The notes under the pieces are model-generated. The model saw nothing but the letters and a program-made list of their open reading frames with translations. It did no database searches and was not told the origin of the DNA. Source: Halomonas stenophila (GTDB lineage: Bacteria; Pseudomonadota; Gammaproteobacteria; Pseudomonadales; Halomonadaceae). Taken from it: a stretch of 64,000 bases of DNA. The translations under genes were made by a program, and so were the position numbers. Of this stretch, positions 15,303 to 61,175 are shown piece after piece (the first letter of the stretch is position 1; every line of letters starts with the position of its first letter). The DNA is taken from contig NZ_JACHXR010000001.1 in the NCBI RefSeq assembly GCF_014192275.1, positions 496,001 through 560,000 on the forward strand, read 5' to 3'.

Positions 15303-17273
<1,971 letters not shown>

Positions 17274-17380: not shown

Positions 17381-18862
17381 ATGACCGCATGGAGCAAGCT
17401 GCTCGTCGCCACCACGCGGCTGATCGACCTGCATGACAGCCGCCACGCACCGGGCTCTCCCTTCGTGCAGGTCAGCCAGGAGCAGCGTAGTGGCCTGAGT
17501 GATGGCTACTGGCTGGATCTCGGTTGCCTGCTGCTGGAATACCTGCTCGATGTCGACTTCGCCACCAACAGCGCCTTCGTCTCCCAGGCCCGCTGCCTGG
17601 CCTGGCTGAAGAGCTACTATCCCGACCTGGTGCATGACGACCTGGCGTTCGTCATCAACCTGCTGGCCACGCCCAGCGAGCTGCACTTTCGTCAATCGTC
17701 CCCGCAACCGGACGCGCGTCAATCGTCCCCGCAACCGGACGCGCGTCAGTCGTCCTCGGCAGCCGGCACGGGCCGGGCCGAGGAGGCGACGCGGGGCGGA
17801 CGCAGCACCAAGCGCACGGCGCTGATCGAGAAGCAGGGCCAGACCGGCCAGGTGCGCCTGACGCCCAGCGGTCGCCAGGCCGTGACCCTGGCCGGCCAGG
17901 TCGAGGACCTGCTGTACTCCGAGTACGATGCGGCCAAGGTGCTGGCGGCGCTGGCGCGGGGCGACTTCGCGCGGATTCCCGATATCACCAACCAGATCCT
18001 GCTGGCGATTCGCGCCCTGACCCAGGAGCTACGCCGGGTCCGCGAGAACCCCACTCGGGAAGGCAAGCTCTCGGCGCTGCTGGACAACGAGCGGCACTAC
18101 CACAATGCCCTGTCGAGCATTCAGCAGACGCTGCTCGACGCCCGGGCCCAGCTCGGCACCCCGCGGCTGATGGAACGCTTCGCGGCCTGGCGCCAGGCCC
18201 AGGGCGAGGACTGGGACCTGCGCATGCTGTCCGGCGCCATCGGCCGGGTGCTCACCGCCATCGAGAACCTGTCGCGGCGCCTCTCGGAGCTGCTCGCCGA
18301 TATCGCCGAGGGGCGCGTCCAGTCCATGGGCGTGGTCGACTTCGCCGGCCTGGCCCGGGAGCTGTTGACCGCCGCGCCGCAGCCGGCGCTGCAGGCGGCG
18401 CTGGTCAAGCGCATGATGCCCTTTCACCAGGCGGTGGCGGTGCCGCGCCTGGCGCCGCTGCTGCCGCTGCTCGAGACGCGCCGGGCCGAGACCAGCCATG
18501 CCGCCCTGGTGTTCGACGAGACCGACGACGCCCGCCCGCAGGACCCGCTGCTGGCGCGCTTCCTCGAGGCCCGGGGGCCGGCGCTGCGCCGACGGGTGGC
18601 GCGGGAGCCGCTGTCGCTGCCCGAGGCGCTGGCCGAGGGCTGGCACCGCTTCGAGGAGGCCGACTGCCTGCCCCAGCTGCTCAACGTCTTCGTCGATACC
18701 CAGCAGCTCGACGACGCCCTGGCAGTGGGCATCGAGGCCCGGCCCTTCCGGCTGGAGCTGCCCGACGGCCGACGCATCGAGGGCCACGTGACGCCCAGCC
18801 TGAGACTCGCCGCCGCGGCCGACGGGCCGCCTCTTGCCACGGAACAGGACGCTCCGCGATGA
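17381..18862 (+). CDS. Wadjet/Mks kleisin-like subunit (JetA/MksF-like)
   Basis: The product has 493 residues and begins a four-gene SMC operon. It is mostly helical, with a winged-helix-like segment (TGQVRLTPSGRQAVTLAGQVE) in the first half and a helical middle, as expected for a kleisin of the MukF/MksF/JetA kind that bridges the SMC heads. Residues 104-121 contain a perfect two-copy repeat of RQSSPQPDA plus a partial third, which forms a linker. The stop overlaps the next start (ATGA). The assignment rests on position, size and fold impression together with unmistakable SMC and Toprim partners; the sequence family itself was not searched. Confidence 0.72.
   Translation: MTAWSKLLVATTRLIDLHDSRHAPGSPFVQVSQEQRSGLSDGYWLDLGCLLLEYLLDVDFATNSAFVSQARCLAWLKSYYPDLVHDDLAFVINLLATPSELHFRQSSPQPDARQSSPQPDARQSSSAAGTGRAEEATRGGRSTKRTALIEKQGQTGQVRLTPSGRQAVTLAGQVEDLLYSEYDAAKVLAALARGDFARIPDITNQILLAIRALTQELRRVRENPTREGKLSALLDNERHYHNALSSIQQTLLDARAQLGTPRLMERFAAWRQAQGEDWDLRMLSGAIGRVLTAIENLSRRLSELLADIAEGRVQSMGVVDFAGLARELLTAAPQPALQAALVKRMMPFHQAVAVPRLAPLLPLLETRRAETSHAALVFDETDDARPQDPLLARFLEARGPALRRRVAREPLSLPEALAEGWHRFEEADCLPQLLNVFVDTQQLDDALAVGIEARPFRLELPDGRRIEGHVTPSLRLAAAADGPPLATEQDAPR
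17690..17758 (+). repeat. 27-base tandem repeat inside the kleisin gene
   Basis: Two identical 27-base units (17690-17716 and 17717-17743) and a partial, slightly changed third (17744-17758) keep the reading frame and encode RQSSPQPDA repeats. The number of copies could vary between strains. Confidence 0.9.
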
Positions 18863-19683
18863 ACATGACCGAGATGGGCGAGGTGGTCGCCTACCTGCTG
18901 CGCTACCGCAGCGCCGAACGCCAGCCGGGCAGCGGCCGCAAGCGCCGTGCGGCCCGGGAGGGCCAGCTCTCCGAGCGCGATGTCTGCGCGCTGATCGACG
19001 ATGCCAGCGATGCCGAGCGCGAGGCCCTGCGCGATTTCCTGGCCGGGCAGGGGCTGCGGCTGCGGGTCCTGGAGGCTGGCGACTACCCGGGCATCGCACC
19101 GGGCTCGCGCTACTTTGCGCTGTTGCCCGATCCCGAGCTCGAACAGCCGCCGCTCTATACCCGCGAGCCGGTGTTCGACGCCCTGCGCCTGCGCCAGGAG
19201 AGCCGCGGCGAGCTCGCCCAGTGGTACCTGCAGCTGTGGCTGCTGATGCATACCCTGCTCTACACCCGCTACAACCGCGCGCTGTCCGACGTCAGTCGCT
19301 ACCAGGAGGCGACCTTCTCGGCACCCGAGCTGGTGGAGTTGATGCGCGACCAGCTCGAGGCCCTGCGCGGCCTGGGCGAGACGGTGCCGGAGGCCAACCT
19401 GTCGCTGCTCGACGAGCGCGGCGAGGACATCAGCCGGCGGGTGCGGGCCTTCATCGACCTGCAGGTCCGCGCCGGCTTGCTGGAACCCCTGCGCGAGGCC
19501 GCCGAGGAGGGCGGCGAGGTCTGGCAGCAGACCCTGCTCGGCGCCCTGGAGAGCGAGCAGGTCGGCATTCACCAGCTGGGACACCTGCAGGCCCTGGCCG
19601 AGGGACGACTCGAGGAGCCGGGCGCCGTCTCGGCCGAGGCCGGGGTCGGGGCGGAACAGGATGCCGAGGAGGGCGAGGCATGA
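18859..19683 (+). CDS. Wadjet/Mks KITE-like subunit (JetB/MksE-like)
   Basis: The 274-residue product starts inside the kleisin stop codon and its own stop overlaps the SMC start, both as ATGA. The middle (RQESRGELAQWYLQLWLLMHTLLYTRYN and following) and the helical, wHTH-like layout suit a KITE protein of the MukE/MksE/JetB kind that binds the kleisin. The N-terminus is basic (GSGRKRRAAREG) and the C-terminus is acidic. Longer than many JetB proteins (around 200 residues). The role is inferred from operon position. Confidence 0.7.
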   Translation: MNMTEMGEVVAYLLRYRSAERQPGSGRKRRAAREGQLSERDVCALIDDASDAEREALRDFLAGQGLRLRVLEAGDYPGIAPGSRYFALLPDPELEQPPLYTREPVFDALRLRQESRGELAQWYLQLWLLMHTLLYTRYNRALSDVSRYQEATFSAPELVELMRDQLEALRGLGETVPEANLSLLDERGEDISRRVRAFIDLQVRAGLLEPLREAAEEGGEVWQQTLLGALESEQVGIHQLGHLQALAEGRLEEPGAVSAEAGVGAEQDAEEGEA

Positions 19684-22600
19684 GCGTGATCAACCGGATC
19701 GAGGTGGCCAACCTGCTCAACAAGCACGGCGACGTGACGTCTCCCTGGGAGGCCAAGATGCGCCACCTGTTGCTCGACCTGCGCGGCCAGTCCAGCGCCA
19801 TCAGCATGGAGAATGGTTTCGGCAAGACCACCCTGGCGGAGGCGCTGATCGGGCTGCTGTCCCGGGACAAGACCCTGCTGACGCGGACCCGCCGCAAGTG
19901 CTCGCCGACCCAGGTAGCCGGCCAGGGACGCAGCTGGAGCCACCTGCGGGTGGAGTTTCGCTCGCGCAGCGGCCAGGGCGGCCAGGAGGACATGCTGGCG
20001 GCGGCGGGCGAGGAGGTCGCCGGCGAGACCTTCGTCTTCGGCTTCTACGGCTACAGCGACGGCAGCGGCCTGTCCTTCTATCACTACACCGGCCGGCTGG
20101 AAGACGTCCCGGTTCACCACCAGACCGTCGACGGCAAGCTGGCGCTCTATGCCAACAGCGACGTCAAGACGGCCATGGGCCGTCAGGGCGTGCGTCTGAC
20201 GCTCAACCGCGAGGAGTGGCTCGAGGCGGTGGGGGCCCATGTCTCGCGCCGGGAACTGGCCCAGCTCGCCGCCTTCCAGAAGGACGGCGGCGCCGACAAG
20301 AGCCAGATCTTCAACGCCATCCGCCCCCGGGCCGGCGAGAAGGCCGACCAGGCCTTCTTCTTCGAGGTGCTGGCGCCGGAGATCCTCTCCGGCGCCACCC
20401 GCGGCGAGACCGACGAGGGCGAGGAGTTGATCGAGGAGGTCATCCTCAACTCCGGGACCAATATCACCGAGTTGCGTCACCGGCTCGAGGAGGCGGAGCG
20501 CGACCAGCGCCGTACCGGCGACAAGGTGGAGTGTCTCGCCGGGCTGACGGGCCGGGGCGAGGCACTGGTCGAGGCGCGTGATCGCCTCATCGCGCTGGAC
20601 CGGGGGCTGGCCGCCAGCGAGCGCCTGCTCGGCGGCCAGGCGCTGAGCGGGCTGCCGGGGGTGCCGCGGCCTCCAGGGGACGGCGACGAGGCCGAGCGGC
20701 TGGCCGGCTTCGCCTGGGGGGTCGGGGATACCGGCCGACCCCGGGTCTCGGTGTGGCTGCTCGCACGGCTCAGCGGCCTCGGCGAGCGCCGATTGCGCCA
20801 GCTGTTCGCCGACCAGGGGCCGAGGGCGGACCATCATCGCCGGCTGATCCACCTGCCCGAGGCGCCCTGGGTCGCCGCCCGGGACGTCGCCCATCTGAGC
20901 TTCGAGGCCGCCCGTGACTGGCTGGCGGGCAGCCTGGCCTTCGATGACGACGCCGCACGGCACCGCGCCGTTTCGGCCCTGGAGGCGGGCGCCGAGGCCT
21001 TCGAGGCGCTCGATGGCAATCGTTTCCGGGACGAGGTGATCGCCGACCGGCACTACCTGGCCGAGCTGGACCGCGACCTGGCAGGCCTCGACGGCGAGTC
21101 AGAGCGGCTCGACCAGGAGCGCGAGCGCCTCGAATCCCGCCGGCGCGAATTCGTCGACAACCAGAGCTTCTTCACCCAGGCCCTGTCAGAAGGGCTCTTC
21201 GACGAGGCCGAGCTGGAAGCGCCCACGGCCACCGCCGAGGCCTGCCGGGCCGAGGCGGCGTCGGCCCGGCAGGCGCTGCTCGATCACACCACCCGGGTGG
21301 GCGAGCTCTCGCGGGTCGCCGAGTGGCACGCGGCCTTCCGCCGCGAACACCCCGCACAAGACCCGGAGACGCTGCTGGAAGAGAAGCGGGAACGCCAGGC
21401 GACCCTCGAGGCGACGCGGCACGCCGCGACAACCGAGCGCGATGCCGCCGCCGCCGCCGTCGAGACGGCGCGTGGCGAGCTTGGCCGCCTCGATGGGGAG
21501 CGCCAGCGGCTCGCCGGGGAGCGTGCCCCCCTCGAGCAGGGGCGGGCGCCCTGGGAGGCCTTCCGTCGCGGCTGGCCCGACGAGGCCGTGTCCGGCTTCT
21601 GGGCCGGTCGCAAGGCGGCGCTGGCCGAGCTCGACGAGGTCTGTCGCGAGGCGCAGCGCCAGCGCGAGGAGGCCGAGCGACGTCGGGCGCGGCTGACGCC
21701 CCTGGCCGAGGCCGCGGGTCGCTATCGCCGCCTCCACGGCGAGGACGAGCCCGTCCACCTGCGTGATCGCCTGCATGCCGAGGCCCGCACCCTCGCCGAC
21801 GAGGCCCATCATCTCGAGGCCGAGGACGCGCGGCTGCGGGAGCTGCACGCGGCACGCCTGGCCTTCGCCGAGGTCAGCGAGCTGGCGCCGTCGGACTGGC
21901 TGCGGGACGCGCGGCGCCGCTATCCGCGGTTGCTCGCCGAGGCGGAGCAGCTCGAGGTCGAGCTCGCCCGGCGCGAGGCCTACCTGGAACAGTTGAATCG
22001 CGACCCGCTGGAGCGACGCGCCGTGGAGGCCGAGGCCCATGCCTGCCTGGACGCCGCCGGGATCGCCTGGCAACCGTTGCATGGGGTGCTCAACGATCCG
22101 GCCCACCCCGAGGCACGGCGTCGGGACTGGCTGGCACAGGCCGCCGGCCTGCTGTTCGCGCCGGTCGTCGAGGGCACCGAGGCCGCCGGCGCCGCGGCCG
22201 AGGCCCTGGTCGAGGCGGGCTTGGCGGTGCCGGTGGTCGAGCGCGAGCGTCTCGCCGGTTGTCTTGGAGCAGAGGCATCGCCGCTGGGCGCGATCCAGGG
22301 CGTCGAGACCCTGGCGGTGAAGGCCGCCCTGGACCCGCGCCACCTGGAGGCCCTGCGCGAGGCCACCCAGCGGCGCCTGGCCGCCGATCGCCAGCGCCGC
22401 GAGGCGCTGGCGGCCGAGTGCCATCGCCTCGACCCCCATGGCGAGCGCCATGCGCTGGCCCTCCAGGCACGTGAGGCCGACGAGGCGGACGTCGAGGCGG
22501 CGCTGCCGCGGCTGGGGGAGCGGCGCGAGGCCCTCGAGGCACGTCGCCAGGCGCTGGCCCCGCGGCTGACCGATGACGCCCTGAGCTGCATCGACGATTA

Positions 22601-24569
22601 CCAGCGGTTTCTCCAGGAGGGCGGCCAGGTCGCCCTGGAGGAAGCCGCCGAGGAGAGGCTCGCCGCCGAGACGCGCCTGGCCGAGGTCGAGCCGGCCCGC
22701 GAGCGGGCCGCCCGGGAACTCGAGACCCATGGCGACACCTGGCTCGCCGCCGAGCGATTCGCCGATGCCGGGGGTGCCCAGCGACTGGTCGAGCTGGAGG
22801 AACGCCTGGCCGGGCTCGATGAGCAGTGGCAGCAGGCCGAGGCGCGACGGGCGGCGAAGACCGAGGCCCTGGAGGCGGCGCGTGGGCGACTCGACGATCT
22901 CGACGGTCAACTGCGGGGCCTGTTCGCCGATGGCGAGCGTGACCGCCTCCAGGCCCTGGCGGACTACGAGCGCCAGGAAGGGCCGGCCTTCATGGCCGGG
23001 GCCGAGGCCCGCCAGGCGACCCTCGAGGCGGCCCAGGCGCGGGCCGGCCGGCGTGCCGATTTCGATTTCGAGCGGATCCGCGCCTACCTGGCGGTACGCG
23101 ATGCCAGCGGCGGCAGCCAGGCCCTGGAGCGGGACCTGGCCAACCTCAAGCGCCGGCTCAGGGAGACCCGGGAGGCGCGCAAGGCCAAGGACCGGGAGCG
23201 TCGCGACGTCCAGGCGCGCCTGACCGATCAGCAGGCCGCCCTCGGCTGGGTGGATCAACTGGGCATCGCCTGGCTGGAGGCGGTGCGCCAGCTGCCGGCG
23301 GGCTGGGCGCGGCGGCTCGGGGCCCCGCTGGCACCGAGCGAGGCCACCTGGCCCGAGGACGCCCCGCAGGCCGAGGCGCGCGAGGCGGCGCTGGCCCGCT
23401 GGCGAGCCCTCGCCGGCGGCGCGGAGGCAACGGAGCTCGCCGAACTGGAAGGCTGCCAGCAGTCGCTGCTCGACGCGCTAGGCGAGATGCACCTCGGCGA
23501 GCGGGCGCGCGACCGCGAGCGTCAGGCCCGCCAGGTGGCCGAGGCCGAACGGGCGCTGACCGCGGCCCTGGAGGAGAGCGCCCACAGCCGCCTGTTCAAC
23601 GAGACCGAACGGGCCCGGCTGGCGTCCCTGCAGGGGGTGACCGAGGCGACCCTGGCCGACCTGGCCGGCCTGCATGCCCAGCTCGACGAGCAGCTGGCGG
23701 AGCACCGCGGCCGGGTCGCGCGCCTGCAGGCTTCCCGCGACCAGATCGAGGGCACCCTGGTCGAGCGCCTCGGCTCGATCATCGGCGATGCCGCCGGCAA
23801 CCTGGATATCCTCAGGCGCGTGGCCCGACGCGGCAGCGAGCGTCGCGATGGCGAGGACGGCGCCTACTTCGAGGTCAAGGCCGGGCTGATCGGCGGCGAC
23901 CAGCTGCGCGAGCTGATCGTCACCCTGCTGGCCGATATCGACGAGCACCAGGCGGCCCTGCGTCGGCGGGCCGAGCGCGACGGCGGCCTGGCCGAGGGCG
24001 AGGCGCTGCGGCGCGACGACGAGCTGCTGGGACAGATTCGCCGGCGCATCTATCGTGGGCTCTTCCACGACGTGGCGATCCGCCTCAAGCACGACGCCAT
24101 CCGTCCCCATGGGCGGCTGTTCTCGCTCAACGAGGCGATGTCGGAAGGCCAACGCGAGGCGGTATCGCTGATGTGGCTGGTCAAGCTCTCCGAGTTCGCC
24201 ATCGAGCGTGAGCTGCGCGAGCTGCCCGGGCATCACAAGCGCCGCGCCCGGGCCAGCCGCGAGAGCGTGATCCTGCTCGATGGCCTGTTCTCCAAGCTCT
24301 CCCATCGCCGGCTGATCCAGGATTCCCTGGAGTCGCTGCGCAACACCCGCGGGCGCTTCCAGATGATCGGGCTGATCCATAATCCCAACTACGAGAACGA
24401 TGCCGAGATCTTCCCGACCTACCTGGTGGGCAGCGTCATCGGTGGCGTGCAGGGGCAGGGCGGACACGTGATGGTCCGCGACGGGCGAGTGGCCGCTCCC
24501 GAGTCCCTGGGTCGGGGTGAGGGGGAGGCGAGCCTGTTCGGTATCCATGTCACGGAGGCAGCGACATGA
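19680..24569 (+). CDS. Wadjet/Mks SMC-like ATPase (JetC/MksB-like)
   Basis: The product has 1629 residues. Walker A is MENGFGKTT (43-51). Very long Glu/Ala/Arg-rich coiled coils follow, broken by globular parts around residues 300-430 and near the middle, and the C-terminal head carries the signature MSEGQREAVSLMW (1487 on) and a Walker B of the form SVILLDGLFSKLS. The residue after the Walker B Asp (D1534) is Gly, where most SMC/ABC ATPases have the catalytic Glu. In Wadjet the motor extrudes plasmid loops for cleavage. I start it at 19680, the ATGA overlap; the frame stays open upstream but overlaps jetB. Its length exceeds typical JetC and MukB. Confidence 0.85.
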   Translation: MSVINRIEVANLLNKHGDVTSPWEAKMRHLLLDLRGQSSAISMENGFGKTTLAEALIGLLSRDKTLLTRTRRKCSPTQVAGQGRSWSHLRVEFRSRSGQGGQEDMLAAAGEEVAGETFVFGFYGYSDGSGLSFYHYTGRLEDVPVHHQTVDGKLALYANSDVKTAMGRQGVRLTLNREEWLEAVGAHVSRRELAQLAAFQKDGGADKSQIFNAIRPRAGEKADQAFFFEVLAPEILSGATRGETDEGEELIEEVILNSGTNITELRHRLEEAERDQRRTGDKVECLAGLTGRGEALVEARDRLIALDRGLAASERLLGGQALSGLPGVPRPPGDGDEAERLAGFAWGVGDTGRPRVSVWLLARLSGLGERRLRQLFADQGPRADHHRRLIHLPEAPWVAARDVAHLSFEAARDWLAGSLAFDDDAARHRAVSALEAGAEAFEALDGNRFRDEVIADRHYLAELDRDLAGLDGESERLDQERERLESRRREFVDNQSFFTQALSEGLFDEAELEAPTATAEACRAEAASARQALLDHTTRVGELSRVAEWHAAFRREHPAQDPETLLEEKRERQATLEATRHAATTERDAAAAAVETARGELGRLDGERQRLAGERAPLEQGRAPWEAFRRGWPDEAVSGFWAGRKAALAELDEVCREAQRQREEAERRRARLTPLAEAAGRYRRLHGEDEPVHLRDRLHAEARTLADEAHHLEAEDARLRELHAARLAFAEVSELAPSDWLRDARRRYPRLLAEAEQLEVELARREAYLEQLNRDPLERRAVEAEAHACLDAAGIAWQPLHGVLNDPAHPEARRRDWLAQAAGLLFAPVVEGTEAAGAAAEALVEAGLAVPVVERERLAGCLGAEASPLGAIQGVETLAVKAALDPRHLEALREATQRRLAADRQRREALAAECHRLDPHGERHALALQAREADEADVEAALPRLGERREALEARRQALAPRLTDDALSCIDDYQRFLQEGGQVALEEAAEERLAAETRLAEVEPARERAARELETHGDTWLAAERFADAGGAQRLVELEERLAGLDEQWQQAEARRAAKTEALEAARGRLDDLDGQLRGLFADGERDRLQALADYERQEGPAFMAGAEARQATLEAAQARAGRRADFDFERIRAYLAVRDASGGSQALERDLANLKRRLRETREARKAKDRERRDVQARLTDQQAALGWVDQLGIAWLEAVRQLPAGWARRLGAPLAPSEATWPEDAPQAEAREAALARWRALAGGAEATELAELEGCQQSLLDALGEMHLGERARDRERQARQVAEAERALTAALEESAHSRLFNETERARLASLQGVTEATLADLAGLHAQLDEQLAEHRGRVARLQASRDQIEGTLVERLGSIIGDAAGNLDILRRVARRGSERRDGEDGAYFEVKAGLIGGDQLRELIVTLLADIDEHQAALRRRAERDGGLAEGEALRRDDELLGQIRRRIYRGLFHDVAIRLKHDAIRPHGRLFSLNEAMSEGQREAVSLMWLVKLSEFAIERELRELPGHHKRRARASRESVILLDGLFSKLSHRRLIQDSLESLRNTRGRFQMIGLIHNPNYENDAEIFPTYLVGSVIGGVQGQGGHVMVRDGRVAAPESLGRGEGEASLFGIHVTEAAT

Positions 24570-25645
24570 GCGCTCCCGGTGAGGCGGCCCGGGCCGTCCA
24601 GGTCTGGCTGGAGGCGGACTGGTGTCGGCAGTACCGGCGCCAGGGAGCGAGACGCTGGCGCAGCGACACCCTGGTGCGTCGCCTGTACCGCGAGGGCATC
24701 TGCGACTCGGAACTGGCGGGGTGGCAGGCCCTGGCCGAGTTGGCCCGCTTCGGCATCCTCGATGCCCCCGAGGCCCTGCGGCACCGTGTCCCGGTGCGGC
24801 TCGGCCTGTCGGAGGGCGAATGCCACCGCCTGCGCGAGGGGATGGTCGGTCCCGATGCCTCCCTCGGGCTGACGGCCGACCAGGCGATCCCGTGGGGCCT
24901 GGCCCTGGAGCGTCGCCTCGACGACTGGTCGCTGGCGGACCAGCGTCGCCTGGTCGAGGGGCTGCGCCGGCTCGCCGCCGACCTGCCCGAGGCCTATGGC
25001 CTGAGCGCCAAGGTGGCCAGTGCCCGCTACCTGCTGGGCAGCAGCAAGCTGCTCGAGGCGTTGCCGGGCGAACTGGTGCGCCGCTTCGGCATCGAGCCGC
25101 GAGCCTTTCGTGCCGCGCCGGTGTGGCTGCTGGCCGCCATGCCCGAGGTGCCGGAAGGGCTTCTGCTGATCGAGAACCCGCAGAGCTTCGCCCAGGCCTG
25201 CCGGGTCGGGCTGGATTGCCGCCTCGCCCTGGTGTGCAGCTTCGGCTACGGCCTCTCGCTTGGCGAGGCGGTGCTCGACCCGGCGACCGTGCGCCTGGTC
25301 GGCGAGCAGGGGCCGTCCCAGGACCTGACGGCACTGCTCGGCCTGCCGTCGCCGACCTACTGGGGGGATCTCGACCCCGAGGGACTGCGGATCTATCGGC
25401 GCCTGAAGGCGCAGCTGCCCGCCTTGCGGCTTTCCGCGTTGCTCGAGCCGATGGCCTCGGCGCTGGCGGGGCAGGGTGGCCACCCGCTGCATCGCCTGAC
25501 CGGCAAGGAGGGGCAGCGGGCGGCCGGCGACTGGACGCGCGGGGTCGATCAGGAATGGCTGGAGGATGCGACGGTGGCGGCACTGGGCGGACAACCGCTG
25601 TCCTCGGCGCTCGAGGCCGAGTGGATGGCGGCGCTGGTCGATTAA
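24566..25645 (+). CDS. Wadjet Toprim nuclease subunit (JetD/MksG-like)
   Basis: The 359-residue product overlaps the SMC gene by ATGA. The N-terminal half is a helical arm/winged-helix region. The C-terminal half is a Toprim fold of the DUF2220/topoisomerase VI A type: the acidic residue E203 in LLIENPQSF and the paired D268 and D270 in YWGDLDPEGLRIYRRLK form the metal site. A further acidic tail motif (GVDQEWLEDA) follows. JetD cleaves plasmid DNA once the SMC motor stalls. This is the most diagnostic gene of the operon and the reason I call it Wadjet-like. Confidence 0.83.
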   Translation: MSAPGEAARAVQVWLEADWCRQYRRQGARRWRSDTLVRRLYREGICDSELAGWQALAELARFGILDAPEALRHRVPVRLGLSEGECHRLREGMVGPDASLGLTADQAIPWGLALERRLDDWSLADQRRLVEGLRRLAADLPEAYGLSAKVASARYLLGSSKLLEALPGELVRRFGIEPRAFRAAPVWLLAAMPEVPEGLLLIENPQSFAQACRVGLDCRLALVCSFGYGLSLGEAVLDPATVRLVGEQGPSQDLTALLGLPSPTYWGDLDPEGLRIYRRLKAQLPALRLSALLEPMASALAGQGGHPLHRLTGKEGQRAAGDWTRGVDQEWLEDATVAALGGQPLSSALEAEWMAALVD

Positions 25646-25657
25646 GCCATCGAGCCC

Positions 25658-26617
25658 TCAGCGGCCGGCCACCACCCGGTTGCGGCCCTGGTGCTTGGCC
25701 CGGTAGAGGCTGTCGTCGGCGCGTTTCATCAGGATATCCCGGGCATCGCCGACGCGGTGTTCGGCGATGCCGATGCTGACGGTGACGCGGCCGCTCTCCA
25801 TGCCATAGTCCTGTGCGGCAATGTGTTCGCGCAGTCGCTCGGCCAGTCGCTCGGCGTGGGCCCGTGGGGTCAGCGGCAGCAGCAGCGCGAATTCCTCGCC
25901 GCCGAGCCGCGCCAGCAGGTCTTCCTCGCGAAGCAGACCCTGGCAGTGCCCCGCCAGCGAGGCCAGGACCTCGTCCCCCTGCAGGTGCCCCCAGGTGTCG
26001 TTGATGGCCTTGAAGTGATCCAGGTCGAGCATCATCAGCGACAGGGGCGTGGCGTGGCGATTGCTCAGGGAGATCTCCTCATCCAGGCGCTGGAGCAGCT
26101 TGCGGCGGTTGGCCAGCCCGGTGAGGGCGTCGGTGTCGGACAGCGCCCGAAGGCGCTCCTCCTCGGCCACCTGCTCGCTGATGTCGAGCATCATGCCGTG
26201 CCAGAGCACGCCGCTCTCGATCCGCTGGGGTTGGGCGCGGACGGCGATCCAGCGACAGTGTTCGCCCTGGACGATCAGGCGGAACTTGGTGGCGATGGGC
26301 GTGCACCAGCGCACCGAGCGCTCGATGGCGGCCATCAGCCGGGGATAATCGTCGTCGTGGACGCGCTCGAGGGCCGGGCGTGCGTCGCCGGCCAGCACCC
26401 CGGGGTCCAGATCGAGGAATCGCGTTCCGCTCCCCACCAGGTGGGGGAAGTGCAGGTGCCCGGCCTCGCTGCGGTGGAGCTGGAAGATCAACCCGGGCAG
26501 TCGTTCCGCCAGTTCGAGAACCCGCTGCGGCTCCGGTCGTTCTCTGCACGGCATGACATCGATCGAAGGCATGCGGTTGTCCTTGTCGTTCCTGCTGCGT
26601 ACAGGAAGATGCTTCAT
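25658..26617 (-). CDS. PAS-GGDEF diguanylate cyclase
   Basis: The product has 319 residues from the chosen start, where CAGGAG lies six bases upstream of ATG 26617; an upstream in-frame ATG (26719) and a downstream one (26572) are possible. A PAS-like sensor (about 30-150, with TKFRLIVQGEHCRWIAVRAQP) precedes a GGDEF domain with an intact active site RLGGEEFALLLP and the usual DALTGLANRRKL start. It makes c-di-GMP from two GTP. No RxxD inhibitory site is evident just before GGEEF. It is soluble. Its stop lies 12 bases from the convergent jetD stop. Confidence 0.9.
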   Translation of the reverse strand: MKHLPVRSRNDKDNRMPSIDVMPCRERPEPQRVLELAERLPGLIFQLHRSEAGHLHFPHLVGSGTRFLDLDPGVLAGDARPALERVHDDDYPRLMAAIERSVRWCTPIATKFRLIVQGEHCRWIAVRAQPQRIESGVLWHGMMLDISEQVAEEERLRALSDTDALTGLANRRKLLQRLDEEISLSNRHATPLSLMMLDLDHFKAINDTWGHLQGDEVLASLAGHCQGLLREEDLLARLGGEEFALLLPLTPRAHAERLAERLREHIAAQDYGMESGRVTVSIGIAEHRVGDARDILMKRADDSLYRAKHQGRNRVVAGR

Positions 26618-26802
26618 CGTCTCCTGCCGCGTTTCAGGCGCCGGAAGGACAATGTCATTATTTGTAAACGTATCGAGGCGCACATGATACACGGGGGGCG
26701 GGAGGCTGGCACTGCCCATCCGTTGTAGGAGATTGCCGACAATTCTCCGGCATTAACGCCCGTTTCTTTCCTTTTCGTGCTTGTTGTTAGCACGACAACA
26801 GA

Positions 26803-26838
26803 TTGCGGGCGCGGAAGGCGCCGGCACACACGGACAGG
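26803..26838. repeat. Duplicate of a cfa gene segment
   Basis: These 36 bases match 26951-26986 inside the adjacent cfa gene at 35 positions, in the same orientation and 148 bases away. Weaker similarity continues for about 25 bases beyond. It looks like the relic of a local duplication of the cfa 3' region. Confidence 0.75.
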
Positions 26839-26886
26839 CCGAGTGGTGAGCCGGAACAGGCGTCGCCGGCGCATGCTCAGCGCGGA

Positions 26887-28038
26887 TCAACGCGGGGCGT
26901 CGTAGCGGCCCGGGCGGCCCAGCGAGTAGACGACCTGCCACAGCTGCAGGTTGCGGGCGCGGAAGGCGCCGGCACACATGGACAGGTAGTAGCGGAACAT
27001 GCGCCGGGTCCGCTCGTTGTAGCGATCGGCGATCTCGTGCCAGTGGGCATCGAAGTTCGCGAGCCAGGCCATCAGGGTGCGGTCATAGTCGGCGCCGAAG
27101 TTCTGCCAGTCCTCCATCAGCAGGTGCTTTTCGCTGGCCTTGGCGATGTGCATGACCGAGGGCAGCACGCCGTTGGGGAAGATGTAGCGGTTGATCCAGG
27201 GGTCGATGCTGATGTCGGAGTTGTTGGAGCCGATGGTGTGCAGCAGGAAGAGCCCCTCCGGCGGCAGCAGCCGCCGAACCGTCTCGAAGTAGGTCTCGTA
27301 GTTGCGGTGGCCGACATGCTCGAACATGCCGATGGAGACGATGCGGTCGAAGCGTCCCTCCAGGTCGCGATAGTCCTCGAGCAGGATCTCCACGGGCAGG
27401 CCCTTGCAGCGCTCCCGGGCAAGCTCGGCCTGCTCCCGGGAGATGGTGATGCCGGTGACGTTGACGCCATGATGCCGTGCGGCATGCTCGGCCAGGCTCC
27501 CCCAGCCGCAGCCGATATCCAGGACGTGCATGCCCGGCTTCAGGTCGAGCTTGCGACAGGCCAGCTCGAGCTTGGCCTTCTGGGCCTCGTGGAGGCTGCC
27601 CGCGTCCTTCCAGTAGCCGCAGGAATAGCACATGGTCTCATCCAGCATGCGCCGGAAGAGATCATTGCCCAGGTCATAGTGCGCCTCGCCGACGATGTAG
27701 GCTCGGGCACGGCTCTGCAGGTTGAAGAATCCGGACTGCAGCCGATACATGAGTCGCTCGGAAGGGGGCTGGGAATGCGCGCCGAGGCCATGGCGCAGCA
27801 TCAGGTTCGCCATCCGGTCGATGCGGTCGCAGTCCCACCAGCCATCCATGTAGGACTCGCCGAGCCCCAGGGTGCCCTGGTGGAGAATGCGGGCAAAGAA
27901 GTCGGGATGGTAGACGCGGATATCCTGGGGGGCATCGCCGTTGAGGCTCACCCCAGAGCCGTCCAGCAGCTTCTCGACAACGTGACGGGCCCGGGTATCG
28001 GGCAGGGCAACAGGGCCGAGGCGTGAGTCACTGGTCAT
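26887..28038 (-). CDS. cfa: Cyclopropane-fatty-acyl-phospholipid synthase
   Basis: The 383-residue enzyme methylates the double bonds of membrane phospholipid acyl chains using S-adenosylmethionine. The SAM site is HVLDIGCGWGSLAEHAA. Family motifs YDLGNDLFRRMLDETMCYSCGYW and IGMFEHVGHRNYETYF are present, and the N-terminal domain carries LGLGESYMDGWWDCD. I chose ATG 28038 because AGGAGGACT lies just upstream; a frame extension to 28107 has no such site. Cyclopropanation stiffens membranes under salt and acid stress. Confidence 0.94.
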   Translation of the reverse strand: MTSDSRLGPVALPDTRARHVVEKLLDGSGVSLNGDAPQDIRVYHPDFFARILHQGTLGLGESYMDGWWDCDRIDRMANLMLRHGLGAHSQPPSERLMYRLQSGFFNLQSRARAYIVGEAHYDLGNDLFRRMLDETMCYSCGYWKDAGSLHEAQKAKLELACRKLDLKPGMHVLDIGCGWGSLAEHAARHHGVNVTGITISREQAELARERCKGLPVEILLEDYRDLEGRFDRIVSIGMFEHVGHRNYETYFETVRRLLPPEGLFLLHTIGSNNSDISIDPWINRYIFPNGVLPSVMHIAKASEKHLLMEDWQNFGADYDRTLMAWLANFDAHWHEIADRYNERTRRMFRYYLSMCAGAFRARNLQLWQVVYSLGRPGRYDAPR

Positions 28039-28168
28039 GGAGTCCTCCTGGTCCCGCAGTGGCTGGATGCCGGATACTGGCGGCGTAACCGCATCTCCCA
28101 TCATCATAGACCACTGATTAAAGTGCGCATCTTCATGCCACCGTCCGCGTCAACGAGGAGAAAACGTC

Positions 28169-28489
28169 ATGCACGTCATCATCGATCTCTGCGTGGTGCC
28201 CCTGGGCGTGGGGGTATCCGTCTCGTCCCATGTGGCCGCCTGTCAGCGGGTCATCGAGGCCTCCGGCCTGGAGCACCGGATGCACGCCTACGGCACCAAC
28301 ATCGAGGGCCCCTGGGACGAGGTGATGGCCGTGGTCAAGCGTTGCCACGAGGCGGTGCACGAGATGGGGGCGCCGCGCATCACCACCACCCTGAAGCTCG
28401 GCACGCGCACCGACCGTGAGCAGCACATGGACGACAAGGTGCAAAGCGTCGAGTCCCTGTTGCGCGCACCCGGCAGTGGTGCGGTGTAA
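28169..28489 (+). CDS. MTH1187 family thiamine-binding protein
   Basis: The 106-residue protein belongs to the small MTH1187/YkoF-like family (UPF0045) with the typical start MHVIIDLCVVPLGVG, the middle HAYGTNIEGPWDEVM and the end KLGTRTDREQHMDDKVQSVE. Relatives bind thiamine and form tetramers. The ATG follows GAGGAGAAAACGTC. It is a single gene before a strong terminator. Confidence 0.88.
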   Translation: MHVIIDLCVVPLGVGVSVSSHVAACQRVIEASGLEHRMHAYGTNIEGPWDEVMAVVKRCHEAVHEMGAPRITTTLKLGTRTDREQHMDDKVQSVESLLRAPGSGAV

Positions 28490-45292: not shown

Positions 45293-45990
45293 TGCTCGCG
45301 ATTGACAAGCTCGACCAGTACTACGGCGAGAGCCATACCCTGTGGTCCCTCGACCTCGAGGTGCCGGCGGGGGAATGCACCTGCGTGATGGGCCGCAACG
45401 GGGTCGGCAAGACCACCCTGATGAAAGCGGTGATGGGCGAGGTCCCAGTGGCCTCGGGCAGCATCCGCTATGCGGATGATGTGGAGCTGACGAAGAAACG
45501 CGTCGAGGACCGTTCGCGGCTGGGCATCGGCTATGTGCCCCAGGGGCGCCAGATCTTCCCGCTGCTCACCGTGGAGGAAAATCTGCGTACCGGCCTGGCG
45601 GCCCGCGGCGATGGTCGCAGGTCGATCCCCGAGCGCATCTACGAGCTGTTCCCGGTGCTGGCGGAGATGAAGCACCGTCGCGGCGGCGACCTCTCGGGCG
45701 GCCAGCAGCAGCAACTGGCCATCGGCCGGGCGCTGGTACTCGAGCCCCGGCTGTTGATCCTCGATGAGCCGGGGGAGGGCATCCAGCCCAATATCGTCAC
45801 CCAGATCGGCGAGGTGATCCGTCGCCTGATCCGCGAGGACGGCCTGACGGTGCTGCTGGTGGAGCAGAAGCTGCCCTTCGCCCGCAAGTATGCCGACCGC
45901 TTCGCGATCATGGACCGGGGGCGACCGGTCGCCGGCGGCGAGATCGGCGAGCTCAGCGAGTCGCTGATCAAGGAGCATCTCAGGGTCTAG
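45292..45990 (+). CDS. urtE: Urea ABC transporter ATP-binding protein UrtE
   Basis: The 232-residue LivF-type ATPase begins MLAIDKLDQYYGESHTLW. Walker A is GRNGVGKTT, the signature is LSGGQQQQLAIGRAL and Walker B is RLLILDEPGEGIQPNI, in which GEGIQ is typical of UrtE. Its ATG shares one base with the urtD stop. The frame is open far upstream, but that part is antisense-like shadow of urtC and urtD. Confidence 0.95.
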   Translation: MLAIDKLDQYYGESHTLWSLDLEVPAGECTCVMGRNGVGKTTLMKAVMGEVPVASGSIRYADDVELTKKRVEDRSRLGIGYVPQGRQIFPLLTVEENLRTGLAARGDGRRSIPERIYELFPVLAEMKHRRGGDLSGGQQQQLAIGRALVLEPRLLILDEPGEGIQPNIVTQIGEVIRRLIREDGLTVLLVEQKLPFARKYADRFAIMDRGRPVAGGEIGELSESLIKEHLRV

Positions 45991-45991
45991 T

Positions 45992-46033
45992 GTCTGGGGT
46001 CTGGGGTCTGGGGTCTGGGGTCTGGGGTCTGGA
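45992..46033. repeat. Heptamer tandem array after urtE
   Basis: Five perfect units of GTCTGGG and one ending in A follow the urtE stop after one base. Simple arrays of this kind can change in length by slippage. Confidence 0.95.
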
Positions 46034-53795: not shown

Positions 53796-54785
53796 TCACC
53801 GCCGATCATGATGGCAGTATGAGAGCCACTCGCTGGCCGCCTTGGGCGGTCTTTTTCTTGATATTCGATCGAATATGCTCGTCGCTTCTTCTTCTGTGTG
53901 GAACCCTCTGACGACGCTGGGGAAATGTCGTGCGCACGATCTCAGGAGTATGCCACCAGGCGCCTTTTTTTCCTGCAAATATACTGTCGCAGATTCGTAG
54001 CCTAATGCTGCCAGGCACGCTATGCGGTGTTGGCCCGTCGAAATGGCAATCGTCCAGTCATTTTCATCCGCCCAGACTGTTCCGGTTATCCAGTCGCCTC
54101 TTTCAGGTGTGTATCCATGTTGTTTTATCGAATCATACAAGGTGGTCAGTCTGCCGTATTCAATGGCAAGTTTTTTTATTTCAATGGGTCCGTATTCACT
54201 TCCTCCGATGAACTTTCCCGTTCTTATGCCTTGTGCTTCATCTTCCTTTCGATAGATGTATTTTAAATAGGATATTTGATCTTCTGGGCGCCTGGAGGCC
54301 CAGAGTGGTGTGGCGGCGAGCGCGGGTAGTGCGTTGAAATCTGTATAGCTGGGGTTGTCGATATCCATTAGATCGCTTGCGCTTTTGGGCTGATAAAGCT
54401 CATAGTAGCGATATAGGGGCGACAGCTCCAAAGGGATGTTCTTGTCGTTTTTGTACTCATTCAAAGTCGCGAGAAAAGGGTGCCCGTCTTCCGGATCAAG
54501 TGAGAAGGCACTGTAGTTGAATGTTACCATCTTGCTCAATGGGGCTGTGATCAGAAAGGGGTTGCCACGAGCAGCATAAGCGGCCTCGATCGGGTGAGGG
54601 CAATCAGCTTTGGTGAGGTCGAAGACAATCGTTTCCTTGGTTTTTCTGATTTCGATGCCGGCAGAATACAGGGAGGATTTTATCAGGTCTTTTGCCGATC
54701 CCGTCAACATGATCTCATCTCCCGGTGGAAAAGCGGCAAGGGGTGGTGGTGCTTTCCGAAAGTGATCGATGAGTTTCCAGCTCAT
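53796..54785 (-). CDS. Hypothetical protein with ParB-like motif, low GC
   Basis: The 329-residue product is soluble and of no family that I recognise with certainty. Near residues 240-270 it has WTIAISTGQHRIACLAALGY, which resembles the phosphate/nucleotide-binding GxHR motif of ParB/sulfiredoxin-like folds. Base composition is clearly lower in G+C than the flanking genes, and codon use differs. It overlaps the end of an ABC exporter gene (ATGA) and is surely co-translated with it. I suspect a part in making or exporting a surface glycan; this is inference from the partner. Confidence 0.65.
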   Translation of the reverse strand: MSWKLIDHFRKAPPPLAAFPPGDEIMLTGSAKDLIKSSLYSAGIEIRKTKETIVFDLTKADCPHPIEAAYAARGNPFLITAPLSKMVTFNYSAFSLDPEDGHPFLATLNEYKNDKNIPLELSPLYRYYELYQPKSASDLMDIDNPSYTDFNALPALAATPLWASRRPEDQISYLKYIYRKEDEAQGIRTGKFIGGSEYGPIEIKKLAIEYGRLTTLYDSIKQHGYTPERGDWITGTVWADENDWTIAISTGQHRIACLAALGYESATVYLQEKKAPGGILLRSCARHFPSVVRGFHTEEEATSIFDRISRKRPPKAASEWLSYCHHDRR

Positions 54786-56617
54786 GCATGCTCGGCCATC
54801 CGCTGGAAAGTTGCATTACGCTCTACCAGCTCGTCAAACGTTCCACTATCAATGACGCGACCGGCCTCCAACAGGTAGATACGGCCGCACGACTTTACAG
54901 TCGCCAGGCGATGGGCAACCATGACAATGGTTTTCTTTCCCGAAAAGTCATGAATGGCATCTATCACCAAACGCTCTGTAATGCCATCCAGAGCGCTGGT
55001 CGCTTCATCCATGACCAGGACTTCCGCGTCATCATACAGTGCCCGCGCGATGCCGATACGTTGGCGTTGCCCCCCCGAGAGCTGAATGCCGCGTTCACCG
55101 ACCCGAGTGTCGAGGCCTTCGGGCAAGCGTTCCAACAGTTCCTCGAGGTGAGCCATCTTGGCGGCACGCAGGACCTTCGCATCGTCAATGCCTTCCCTGG
55201 GCAGGCCAAAGGCGATGTTTTCCCGAATGCTGGCATCGGCCAGGAAGATACTTTGGGGCACGAAGCCAAGGGTGTTCTGCCACGCCCGGCGCCGGTCGGG
55301 TGTCAGGGGTTGACCATCCAGCGAAACCTGCCCCTTTTCAGGCACAATCAGTCCTAGAAGCAGGTCGATGATGGTGCTTTTGCCACAGCCTGAAGCACCA
55401 ACCAGACCGATGACGCCATTGACGGGAATGGTCAGGTTGATGTCTTCCAGCGTGATTTCCCTCTTGCCTGGATAGCGGAACGTAATGTTTTCCAGGCTGA
55501 TGGAGTGATGGGGCACCCATTTTTCGTCCCGAAGCGTTGACTCGCCTTGGTCGTTCTCGGGCTGACTGGCCTCCAGGTCATCTTGCAGGTTGGTGAAGGA
55601 CGCAATGTTGCCACGCACCGTGGCCAGGCCGCGGTAGATTTGCTGGAAGGCCGGCATCAGCTTGAACCCTGCCATGGCATACACGGAGAGAATTGGCAGG
55701 ATCGTGCTCAGGTTGCCTTGATGCGTGATCAGTAAATAAAGAACCAGCGTGATGACAGCCCCGAAGGCAACCAGTTCCATGAGATAACGCGGGGCTTGGC
55801 TGAGGGCCATGTTGGTGCCTTTGGCATACCCCAGTTGTCGGCTCGACTTTTCGAAACGACGATTGAACTCAGATTGACGTCCCAGGAGTAGAGTATCCTT
55901 GATGCCGCCAAACCCTTCGTTCATTAATTTAAAGCGTAGGCGGTTGGTCTTGCTCACCACGCTGCCATTATGGATCAGCCTGCGACGGACAGTGCGATAG
56001 AGTACCCAATAGATGAAGCTGAATAATGCCAGGCCGCTTAATGCTACCCATGGGTTGAACAAGAAGATTGCTGTCGAAATGAAAAAGGTCAAGAAGATTT
56101 TGGCGTTTATTTGCATCAAGGGCGACAGGACGTTGTCGCTGATTCGCCTGCACTCCTGGGCGAGCTTGTTGGTAAGGTCACTGCTGCTTCCGGCGGCATG
56201 GAACAGCCAGTCCTGTTGCATGTAATGCCTGTATAGGCGCGTGCTCAGTTCGGCCCCCACTTGCTGGGAATAGAGTGATAGCTTCCAGGTAGTGAGGACA
56301 GAAAATATGGCGGCGATGGTTAACACGCCCAGTACACCCAAACCTAGCCAGAACAGGAAAGTGGTGGGGTCACCATTGCCGTGCAGGCGATAGAAGCTGG
56401 CCAGGATTCCCTGCCCCTCGAGGATGCTCATGTTCCCGACTACCGCCATGAACCCCCCTATGGCGGCGATGCTGGAGAGCTCTGCGAAGGACATCGCGGC
56501 GACCAATAATTGCAAGCGGAAAAGGCGCTTGCGTTGTTCGGCTGTCAGCAACCGGTACAGTCGTTTTATACTAGGTATCAATGGAGAGGTTGATATGTTC
56601 TTGACCAGAGGTTCCAT
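54782..56617 (-). CDS. ABC exporter, fused permease-ATPase (lipid/oligosaccharide flippase-like)
   Basis: The 611-residue half-transporter has about six membrane helices (residues 25-340) and a C-terminal ATPase: Walker A GASGCGKST, signature QLSGGQRQRIGIARAL, Walker B EVLVMDEATSALDG and the H-loop MVAHRLAT. The membrane part resembles MsbA/PglK-type flippases of lipid-linked glycans. I start it at 56617, where GGGAG lies six bases upstream, rather than at 56671. GC content is well below the surroundings, which suggests transfer together with the downstream partner. Confidence 0.85.
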   Translation of the reverse strand: MEPLVKNISTSPLIPSIKRLYRLLTAEQRKRLFRLQLLVAAMSFAELSSIAAIGGFMAVVGNMSILEGQGILASFYRLHGNGDPTTFLFWLGLGVLGVLTIAAIFSVLTTWKLSLYSQQVGAELSTRLYRHYMQQDWLFHAAGSSSDLTNKLAQECRRISDNVLSPLMQINAKIFLTFFISTAIFLFNPWVALSGLALFSFIYWVLYRTVRRRLIHNGSVVSKTNRLRFKLMNEGFGGIKDTLLLGRQSEFNRRFEKSSRQLGYAKGTNMALSQAPRYLMELVAFGAVITLVLYLLITHQGNLSTILPILSVYAMAGFKLMPAFQQIYRGLATVRGNIASFTNLQDDLEASQPENDQGESTLRDEKWVPHHSISLENITFRYPGKREITLEDINLTIPVNGVIGLVGASGCGKSTIIDLLLGLIVPEKGQVSLDGQPLTPDRRRAWQNTLGFVPQSIFLADASIRENIAFGLPREGIDDAKVLRAAKMAHLEELLERLPEGLDTRVGERGIQLSGGQRQRIGIARALYDDAEVLVMDEATSALDGITERLVIDAIHDFSGKKTIVMVAHRLATVKSCGRIYLLEAGRVIDSGTFDELVERNATFQRMAEHA

Positions 56618-61140: not shown

Positions 61141-61175
61141 TTACAGTTTACAGCTTACAGCTTACAGCTTACAGC
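61141..61175. repeat. TTACAGY heptamer array ending in the purN stop codon
   Basis: Five units TTACAGT/TTACAGC lie in tandem. The last unit (61169-61175) encodes the final codons and the stop (CTG TAA on the minus strand) of purN. Confidence 0.93.

What the first reader, a model, noticed from the sequence alone, without database searches (positions are those of the whole stretch)
17381..25645. Complete four-gene Wadjet/MksBEFG-like SMC defence operon
Four genes encode a kleisin-like protein, a KITE-like protein, a 1629-residue SMC ATPase and a Toprim nuclease with ENPQSF and GDLDPEG acidic motifs. All three junctions are ATGA overlaps. This order matches the known JetABCD anti-plasmid systems. 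The SMC protein is longer than usual JetC or MukB, and the first two proteins do not clearly resemble the best-studied subtype, so this may be a divergent or poorly described branch.
Basis: partly seen in the sequence, partly recalled or inferred. Interest (0 to 1): 0.75.

Follow-up and report, generated by a model that had tools for sequence, protein, structure and literature searches.

The report
Divergent Wadjet-like SMC operon, detachable nuclease
A four-gene operon in a Halomonas-like bacterium encodes a probable ring-shaped DNA-handling complex plus a probable DNA-cutting partner; it belongs to a family that the defence profiles tested mostly miss, whose ring protein lacks a residue normally needed to split ATP and many of whose relatives keep the ring without the cutter.

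Summary
The four genes are real: A 17381-18862, B 18859-19683, C 19680-24569, D 24566-25645, joined by three ATGA overlaps. D is a JetD-type Toprim protein. A's predicted fold best resembles MukF/JetA kleisins (low-confidence model), B is a winged-helix protein compatible with a KITE, and C is an SMC ATPase. PADLOC, Pfam and NCBIfam give no JetA, JetB or JetC match, so this is Wadjet-like but outside the profiled types.

(1) C's Walker B reads DGLFSxLS where JetC and SMC controls read DE...D; Gly and Ser are fixed in 70 of 70 aligned homologues, down to 27% identity. (2) ABC lies in one chromosomal region in most Halomonadaceae found, while D is present, absent or decaying; D needs 13 changes on the C tree, and ABC without D stays under purifying selection. 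(3) At that site, 11 of 14 ABC-less relatives are empty and 3 carry another SMC-Toprim operon.

Best reading: a Wadjet-like DNA-defence system whose nuclease is repeatedly lost, and probably sometimes regained, leaving an MksBEF-like SMC complex. Function is untested; the ATP cycle is unexplained.

The parts
17381..18862 (+). Gene A, 493 aa: predicted MukF/JetA-like kleisin; variable linker about residues 105-137 with a 27-bp repeat (17690-17755)
   Evidence: the five best of 508 Foldseek matches come from MukE-MukF, MukBEF or E. coli JetABC(D) entries, best E 8.6e-3; VIA Z 12.4, rmsd 12.7, 209 aligned to MukF(1-287); mean pLDDT only 65; repeat
18859..19683 (+). Gene B, 274 aa: winged-helix protein, possible KITE
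   Evidence: best rows Z 6-8, MukBEF and JetABC chains mixed with unrelated winged-helix proteins; mean pLDDT 66
19680..24569 (+). Gene C, 1629 aa: SMC ATPase; Walker A about 43-51, signature 1487-1491, degenerate Walker B/D-loop LLDGLFSKLS 1532-1541, H-loop HN 1567-1568, conserved C-terminal GEASLF peptide
   Evidence: compared with JetC and the genome's own SMC
24566..25645 (+). Gene D, 359 aa: JetD-type Toprim protein; E203, D268, D270, E272 and D328-x-E330 invariant in 21 rows
   Evidence: PADLOC JetD1 E 1.1e-14; Pfam JetD_C 24.3 bits, cut-off 22
15303..17273 (-). RecQ-like helicase, common left neighbour of the site; not part of the system (name from my reading, not profiled)
25658..28489 (.). 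Right-hand neighbours (GGDEF -, cyclopropane fatty-acid synthase-like -, MTH1187-like +) that mark the site; not part of the system (names from my reading, not profiled)

Best explanation
ABCD is a divergent SMC-kleisin-KITE-nuclease system that works like Wadjet. An SMC dimer (C), bridged by a kleisin (A) and carrying KITE subunits (B), captures foreign DNA, probably small circles, and licenses the Toprim protein D to cut it. It lies outside Wadjet types I-III as profiled. Its ATP cycle must differ: the Walker B glutamate is glycine and the D-loop aspartate is serine in every homologue aligned, while Walker A, the signature motif and an H-loop histidine (absent from the four JetC proteins inspected) are kept. 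I suggest that the H-loop histidine or a partner residue supports slow hydrolysis, or that ATP binding alone is the switch. In most Halomonadaceae loci found, ABC sits in one chromosomal region. D has been lost repeatedly, and probably regained at least once, leaving a nuclease-free ABC that resembles MksBEF and is still under purifying selection. Shown: gene content, motifs, site, presence, absence and decay of D, selection. Inferred: complex assembly, DNA cutting, plasmid defence, the ATP mechanism, and loss rather than gain for most of the changes.
For: D matches JetD, as do the two distant D proteins; its acids are conserved. A's nearest solved folds are MukF/JetA-type. Order and overlaps fit JetABCD (PMC10586767 section 4). 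One distant ABCD copy (L038) lies near PADLOC-listed candidates (Fic, nucleotidyltransferase pair, reverse transcriptase, PDC-S06), another (L039) beside a WYL regulator. The genus site holds ABC(D), nothing, or another SMC-Toprim operon. Identities of C and D correlate, r = 0.87 (21 family rows). D needs 13 changes on the C tree, 12 forced. In 3 of 5 sister pairs compared, D is cleanly missing from one member. Decay of D is seen as a 5' remnant (L055), a partial deletion (L077) and a frameshift (L078/L016). dN/dS of C is 0.058-0.136 in 9 D-less pairs. All 24 carriers tested also have canonical SMC.
Against: No JetA, JetB or JetC profile matches. Fold matches for A and B are weak: no Foldseek E <= 0.001, and unrelated proteins score as high in VIA. 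Canonical Wadjet cleavage needs a working JetC ATPase (PMC10586767), yet the glutamate is missing. A shared chromosomal site and frequent absence of D also fit a housekeeping SMC complex. The D tree is poorly resolved (8 of 19 inner branches starred), and the D of Salinicola salarius L109 groups with Chromohalobacter D, against the C tree, so D was probably gained there. Phage and viral-contig searches gave no relatives. No functional data.
Confidence: 0.6

Rival explanations
1. ABC is primarily an accessory chromosomal SMC complex (MksBEF-like) of the Halomonadaceae and Oceanospirillum, and D is a sporadic add-on rather than the point of the system.
For: At least one marker of the window site within the fetched flanks of 61 of 68 loci, both sides in 36; a D profile found D in none of 41 genomes beyond a remnant in one (41 of the 46 genomes or loci counted as D-less or remnant were searched); low dN/dS of ABC without D; D-less copies form deep groups (15 of 16 Salinicola-group rows, 3 of 3 Oceanospirillum).
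Against: Patchy: 22 of 61 genus genomes carry C and 11 of 14 ABC-less relatives examined have an empty site, so it is dispensable; the 24 carriers tested have canonical SMC; the two distant copies have D and lie near defence-type genes; C and D identities correlate.
Confidence: 0.25
2. A Lamassu-like Rad50/SMC system rather than Wadjet.
For: The only PADLOC hit of C is LmuB, E 8.6e-4, over residues 465-772 in the arm.
Against: The hit lies in coiled coil; no LmuA or LmuC hit among the four proteins; D is JetD-type; A's fold is MukF/JetA-like.
Confidence: 0.04
3. A catalytically dead, decaying operon.
For: Missing Walker B glutamate; C in two frames in G032; frameshifted D and Walker A K49R in L016/L078.
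Against: All four window genes are intact with strict overlaps; the Walker B change is invariant down to 27% identity and C has low dN/dS, the opposite of decay.
Confidence: 0.05

Closest known systems
Wadjet / JetABCD / MksBEFG (types I-III)
   Same: Kleisin-KITE-SMC-Toprim gene order; JetD-type Toprim with conserved acids; MukF/JetA-like predicted fold of A
   Different: No JetA/B/C profile match; C is 1629 aa; Walker B DG instead of DE and D-loop LS instead of MD; H-loop His present where the four inspected JetC lack it; D often absent from relatives
MksBEF of Pseudomonas aeruginosa (and MukBEF)
   Same: SMC-kleisin-KITE without a nuclease, as in the D-less relatives; the review says MksBEF likely originated by loss of JetD
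   Different: No profile or PDB sequence match found; Walker B differs; the window copy still has D
DUF3584-MksE-(414 aa)-DUF7281 operon at the same site in G028 (L119), and by eye in G006 and G019
   Same: SMC, MksE-like, third gene and Toprim-like gene next to the same RecQ
   Different: SMC gene first; its Walker B has DE; no sequence relation detected
SMCL-1 of C. elegans (PMC5373644, passages)
   Same: SMC-type head lacking the Walker B catalytic glutamate, predicted to bind but not hydrolyse ATP
   Different: SMCL-1 is short, cannot pair hinge to hinge, has a degenerate signature motif and acts on other SMCs; C is full length with a conserved signature

Membership tests
Wadjet (JetABCD) | JetD-type Toprim nuclease gene with conserved acids | tested here: met
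   PADLOC JetD1 1.1e-14; Pfam JetD_C above cut-off; E203, D268, D270 invariant. MksG counterparts E236/D279 from passages; the residue mapping is my inference
Wadjet (JetABCD) | SMC ATPase recognised by JetC models | tested here: not met
   No JetC hit at E <= 1 for C, none at E <= 0.1 for distant C L038; a whole-genome search with JetC1 model PDLC00504 found nothing in the window's genome
Wadjet (JetABCD) | JetA kleisin and JetB KITE recognised by sequence models | tested here: not met
   0 families at E <= 1 for A and B in PADLOC, Pfam and NCBIfam
Wadjet (JetABCD) | Kleisin fold of subunit A | tested here: inconclusive
   Top Foldseek rows MukF/JetA-type but E >= 8.6e-3, pLDDT 65; VIA Z 12.4, rmsd 12.7, 209 aligned, with an unrelated designed protein at Z 10.7
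Wadjet (JetABCD) | KITE fold of subunit B | tested here: inconclusive
   Z 6-8 among many winged-helix proteins, the top row being a replication terminator protein at Z 8.1
Wadjet (JetABCD) | Canonical Walker B glutamate for ATP hydrolysis | tested here: not met
   G1535 in 70 of 70 rows; four JetC read DEAF
Wadjet (JetABCD) | Operon order kleisin-KITE-SMC-Toprim | tested here: met
   Order as in A-B-C-D, with A and B identified only by weak fold evidence
Wadjet (JetABCD) | Restriction of circular plasmids | not testable with these tools
   needs an experiment
Canonical Smc-ScpAB | Match to TIGR02168 | tested here: not met
   C's only NCBIfam hit at E <= 1 is TrlF, 0.15; the genome has a separate TIGR02168 gene
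Lamassu | LmuB SMC with LmuA effector | tested here: not met
   Only a coiled-coil LmuB hit at 8.6e-4 and no LmuA among the four proteins
MukBEF/MksBEF | SMC-kleisin-KITE complex lacking a nuclease | tested here: not met
   The window copy has D; relatives without D would meet this content

The most novel reading that the evidence does not exclude
A family of full-length SMC proteins has permanently replaced the catalytic Walker B glutamate and the D-loop aspartate by Gly and Ser while keeping ATP-binding, signature and H-loop residues. It therefore runs on ATP-binding-driven clamping or histidine-assisted hydrolysis rather than the standard SMC cycle. Repeated loss of its nuclease shows, many times within one bacterial family, the proposed transition from a Wadjet-type defence system to an MksBEF-like chromosomal complex.
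Probability: 0.3. Interest if true: 0.85.

Novelty: new variant of a known kind. Interest (0 to 1): 0.62.

Why it matters
Whether an SMC complex can work without the Walker B glutamate, and whether MksBEF/MukBEF descended from nuclease-armed defence systems (a scenario put forward in PMC10586767), are open questions. Here is a full-length SMC family without the glutamate, and pairs of sister genomes that differ at the locus by the nuclease gene. Both questions become testable in halophiles. The family is also missed, apart from D, by the defence and protein profiles tested (PADLOC-DB 2023, Pfam, NCBIfam).

Tried and rejected
Sequence searches for solved relatives of A, B and C gave nothing convincing. 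D's profile touched MksG and JetD at the GDxDxEG stretch only, E 0.17 and 0.71, below RAD24 chance rows at 0.12-0.17. Profile comparison of the C heads with three JetC sequences put the Walker A and Walker B stretches opposite each other, at E 2.4e-4 for Walker A but 0.16 for Walker B; against the DUF3584 SMC only Walker A aligned (E 0.0015), the C-terminal parts not. I therefore assign the motifs by order and spacing: 33 residues from the Walker B Asp to the H-loop His here, 32 by my count in the genome's own SMC.

Considered and rejected: phage origin (no phage or viral-contig relative); plasmid carriage as the norm (two plasmid records of near-identical length, one looked at); D encoded elsewhere in D-less genomes; ABC as the only condensin of its hosts (the control set also rings in 14 of 14 genomes, 10 over the cut-off). 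Sampling the orders of the two distant carriers found no further copy: 1 of 4 and 1 of 210 genomes, each the known carrier.

Limits. The 70-row C alignment has 68 different rows and leaves out L105, whose C is incomplete here. The tree is a quick one (LG+G4, SH-aLRT only, long distant branches). Of 17 dN/dS pairs, 3 mixed pairs (C 0.090-0.158) are not in the quoted ranges, nor is the D value of L077/L099, which compares a remnant; one D-less pair includes L055 with a D remnant; a D-less pair does not prove that the loss came before its split. Two of five sister pairs (L054/L082, L077/L099) did not show a clean absence of D. A codon-bias ORF list hid some genes and is not used for counts.
Full report
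What is there. Four ORFs of 493, 274, 1629 and 359 aa lie at 17381-18862, 18859-19683, 19680-24569 and 24566-25645 on the + strand. Each junction is ATGA. A RecQ-like gene lies to the left on the other strand; GGDEF-, CFA-synthase-, MTH1187- and HPPD-like genes lie to the right (names from my reading of the sequences).

Profiles. D matches PADLOC JetD1 (E 1.1e-14) and Pfam JetD_C (24.3 bits, cut-off 22). A and B match nothing at E <= 1 in PADLOC, Pfam or NCBIfam. C matches LmuB in its arm (PADLOC, 8.6e-4) and, far below cut-off, ABC_tran, AAA_23 and TrlF. The two distant D proteins also match JetD.

Folds. AlphaFold models from 29-row alignments have mean pLDDT 65 (A) and 66 (B). The five best of 508 Foldseek matches for A are MukE-MukF, MukBEF or E. 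coli JetABC(D) entries, which I read as the kleisin chains, with E 8.6e-3 to 3.5e-2. VIA-align gives eight MukF-type rows at the top, best Z 12.4 (rmsd 12.7, 209 aligned) to MukF(1-287), and Z 10.3 (rmsd 33.0, 305 aligned) to a Wadjet-II JetABC chain; an unrelated designed repeat protein scores 10.7. For a helical, low-confidence model this is supportive rather than decisive. B is a winged-helix protein: Foldseek finds nothing below E 0.28, though its first row is a MukBEF chain. In VIA, MukBEF/MukE-MukF chains (Z 6.2-6.8) and a PA14 JetABC chain (Z 7.7, rmsd 4.5, 105 aligned) are among the best rows, but a replication terminator protein leads with Z 8.1 and other winged helices score the same.

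SMC motifs. In 70 aligned C proteins (68 different), K49 of Walker A is K in 69 and R in one, D1534 is invariant, position 1535 is Gly in 70, position 1541 is Ser in 70, and S1488, G1490, Q1491, H1567 and N1568 are invariant. The R is in the H. beimenensis copy L016, which is also L078. Two rows, L038 and L039, are only 28 and 27% identical to the window protein. Four JetC proteins fetched as controls, three of them similar to each other, read DEAF(S/E)KMD and lack a histidine at the H-loop place. The genome's own SMC and two others read LDEVDAPLDD with a (T/S)HN H-loop. A broken copy on a P. aeruginosa plasmid also reads ILDGLFSNLSH. So this family has H without E, the inspected JetC have E without H, and SMC has both. 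That loss of the Walker B glutamate disrupts hydrolysis is stated in the passages of PMC5373644 that I saw and is otherwise recalled.

Distribution. C is in 22 of 61 genomes of the genus, the window's included, and in none of 36 genomes from other families of the order. Evenly drawn samples gave 3 of 369 genomes of the class (one the window's) and 3 of 398 of the phylum (one the window's, two from its family). The named-genome scan reported 107 relatives, kept the best 80 and gave 68 distinct loci: Halomonadaceae genera, Oceanospirillum, Terasakiispira and one unclassified gammaproteobacterium. At least one flanking marker of the window site lies within the fetched flanks (up to 10 kb) of 61 of 68, and markers on both sides in 36 of 68. 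The seven with none are L046, L070, L096, L097, L099, L101 and L102, of which L046 and L097 have under 1 kb downstream.

The site in relatives without ABC. Of 16 genus genomes without C but with a clear RecQ orthologue, I fetched the DNA beside RecQ in 14. In 11 of 14, the RecQ match is followed after about 0.1 to 0.9 kb by the GGDEF or CFA gene, an empty site. In 3 of 14 (L115, L119, L120) another operon lies there. Only the L119 proteins were profiled: they match DUF3584 (743 bits), MksE (35.5 bits, cut-off 27) and DUF7281 (38 bits, cut-off 27), the 414-aa third product matching nothing over its cut-off; L115 and L120 look alike by eye.

D is optional. By protein search, 8 of 22 genus carriers have D in the genome, one of them frameshifted. 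In the 68 named loci, 20 have an apparently intact D, one a frameshifted D (L078), one a remnant (L077), and 46 none, of which L046 and L097 end near C. A D profile was run over 41 of the genomes counted as D-less or remnant (L046, L073, L074, L091, L092 and L108 were not given): nothing in 40, the known remnant in one. On the C tree (70 rows, 24 labelled D including the frameshifted one and the two distant ones; L077 counted as without) the label needs 13 changes, 12 forced by well-supported branches, against a mean of 20.1 for shuffled labels, none of 500 as low. Identities of C and D correlate with r = 0.87 within the family (21 rows) and 0.85 with the distant pair, as expected if D mostly travelled with C. 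But the D tree has only 8 of 19 inner branches starred, and the one Salinicola D (L109) joins Chromohalobacter D (87/92), unlike its C; there D was probably gained. So I favour repeated loss with at least one gain.

Sister loci. L059/L056, L084/L089 and L103/L109 align up to about 10-25 bases before the end of C and again 6 to 80 bases after D (20 bases after C in the first two D-less loci, 470 in L103), with D missing from the first of each pair. Two further pairs were less simple: L054 carries other sequence after C, and L077 keeps ends of D. L055 keeps a short 5' piece of D.

Selection. In nine pairs where both lack D, dN/dS of C is 0.058-0.136, of A 0.054-0.163 and of B 0.030-0.235. In five pairs where both have D, C is 0.051-0.160, A 0.104-0.353, B 0.098-0.158 and D 0.205-0.312; the highest A and D values come from a pair with dS under 0.01. 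ABC without D is therefore maintained, not decaying.

Context elsewhere. The distant ABCD of L038 lies within about 5 kb of a Fic protein, a nucleotidyltransferase pair and a reverse transcriptase on one side, and directly beside SbcCD-like genes (my name; Metallophos and AAA_27 hits) with a PDC-S06-like gene beyond on the other. L039 has a divergent WYL-domain gene before A. All 24 carriers tested have canonical SMC above the family cut-off. Phages and viral contigs gave no relative.

Mechanism. By analogy with Wadjet as described in PMC10586767 (section 4 read), ABC should capture DNA and D should cut it. MksG residues E236/D279 and conserved glutamates E349/E351 (passages of PMC10123090) have likely counterparts in E203/D268 and D328-x-E330 (my mapping). 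The missing Walker B glutamate means that the ATP step cannot be assumed. The H-loop histidine is my proposed substitute and is untested.

Novelty search. Searches for Wadjet with JetC and 'type IV', with MksB, kleisin and Toprim, with DUF2220, with Halomonas, with E1025Q, with loop extrusion, and for SMC complexes with Walker B and catalytic glutamate listed no title or abstract start that names this family. The library lacks most subscription papers and preprints are mostly absent. Of the papers listed I saw one section of PMC10586767 and passages of PMC10123090, PMC5373644 and PMC12647877; the rest only as listings.

Noticed in passing
L115, L119 (1877-8402), L120; same genomic site: A different SMC-MksE-third gene-Toprim-like operon (in L119: DUF3584, MksE, no match, DUF7281) occupies the RecQ site in three relatives; PADLOC sees it only marginally.
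   Followed up: partly
L043-L045 and L078, between B and C: Tandem 188-bp duplications (176 bp for one copy in L045) of the B end and first about 56 codons of C make one or two extra short ORFs (59-63 aa), each with the P-loop lysine replaced and each starting at ATGA. L045 has an N-run in the main copy.
   Followed up: partly
window 17690-17755: 27-bp tandem repeat (2.4 copies) in the variable linker of gene A; linker length differs between relatives.
   Followed up: no
L042 (P. aeruginosa plasmid NZ_MT732184.1): Broken relative: C-terminal part of C and a D-like gene beside a Tn3 transposase and mercury-resistance genes; Walker B also reads DGLFS.
   Followed up: partly
L016 / L078 (H. beimenensis, G024): Frameshifted D and Walker A K49R in C together: possibly a dying copy.
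   Followed up: no
L056, L058, L059, L084, L085, L088, L089, L100, just after C or D: A small gene whose start resembles truncated haemoglobins (recalled, by eye, not profiled) directly follows the operon.
   Followed up: no
G032 (L033): C is split into two overlapping frames near residue 824: frameshift or assembly error.
   Followed up: no
window 54001-56000: GC falls to 0.535 against 0.61-0.76 in the other 2-kb steps of the window, perhaps acquired DNA.
   Followed up: no
window 45983-46032 and 61141-61176: Short 7-bp tandem repeats (7.1 and 5.1 copies) that could vary in length.
   Followed up: no
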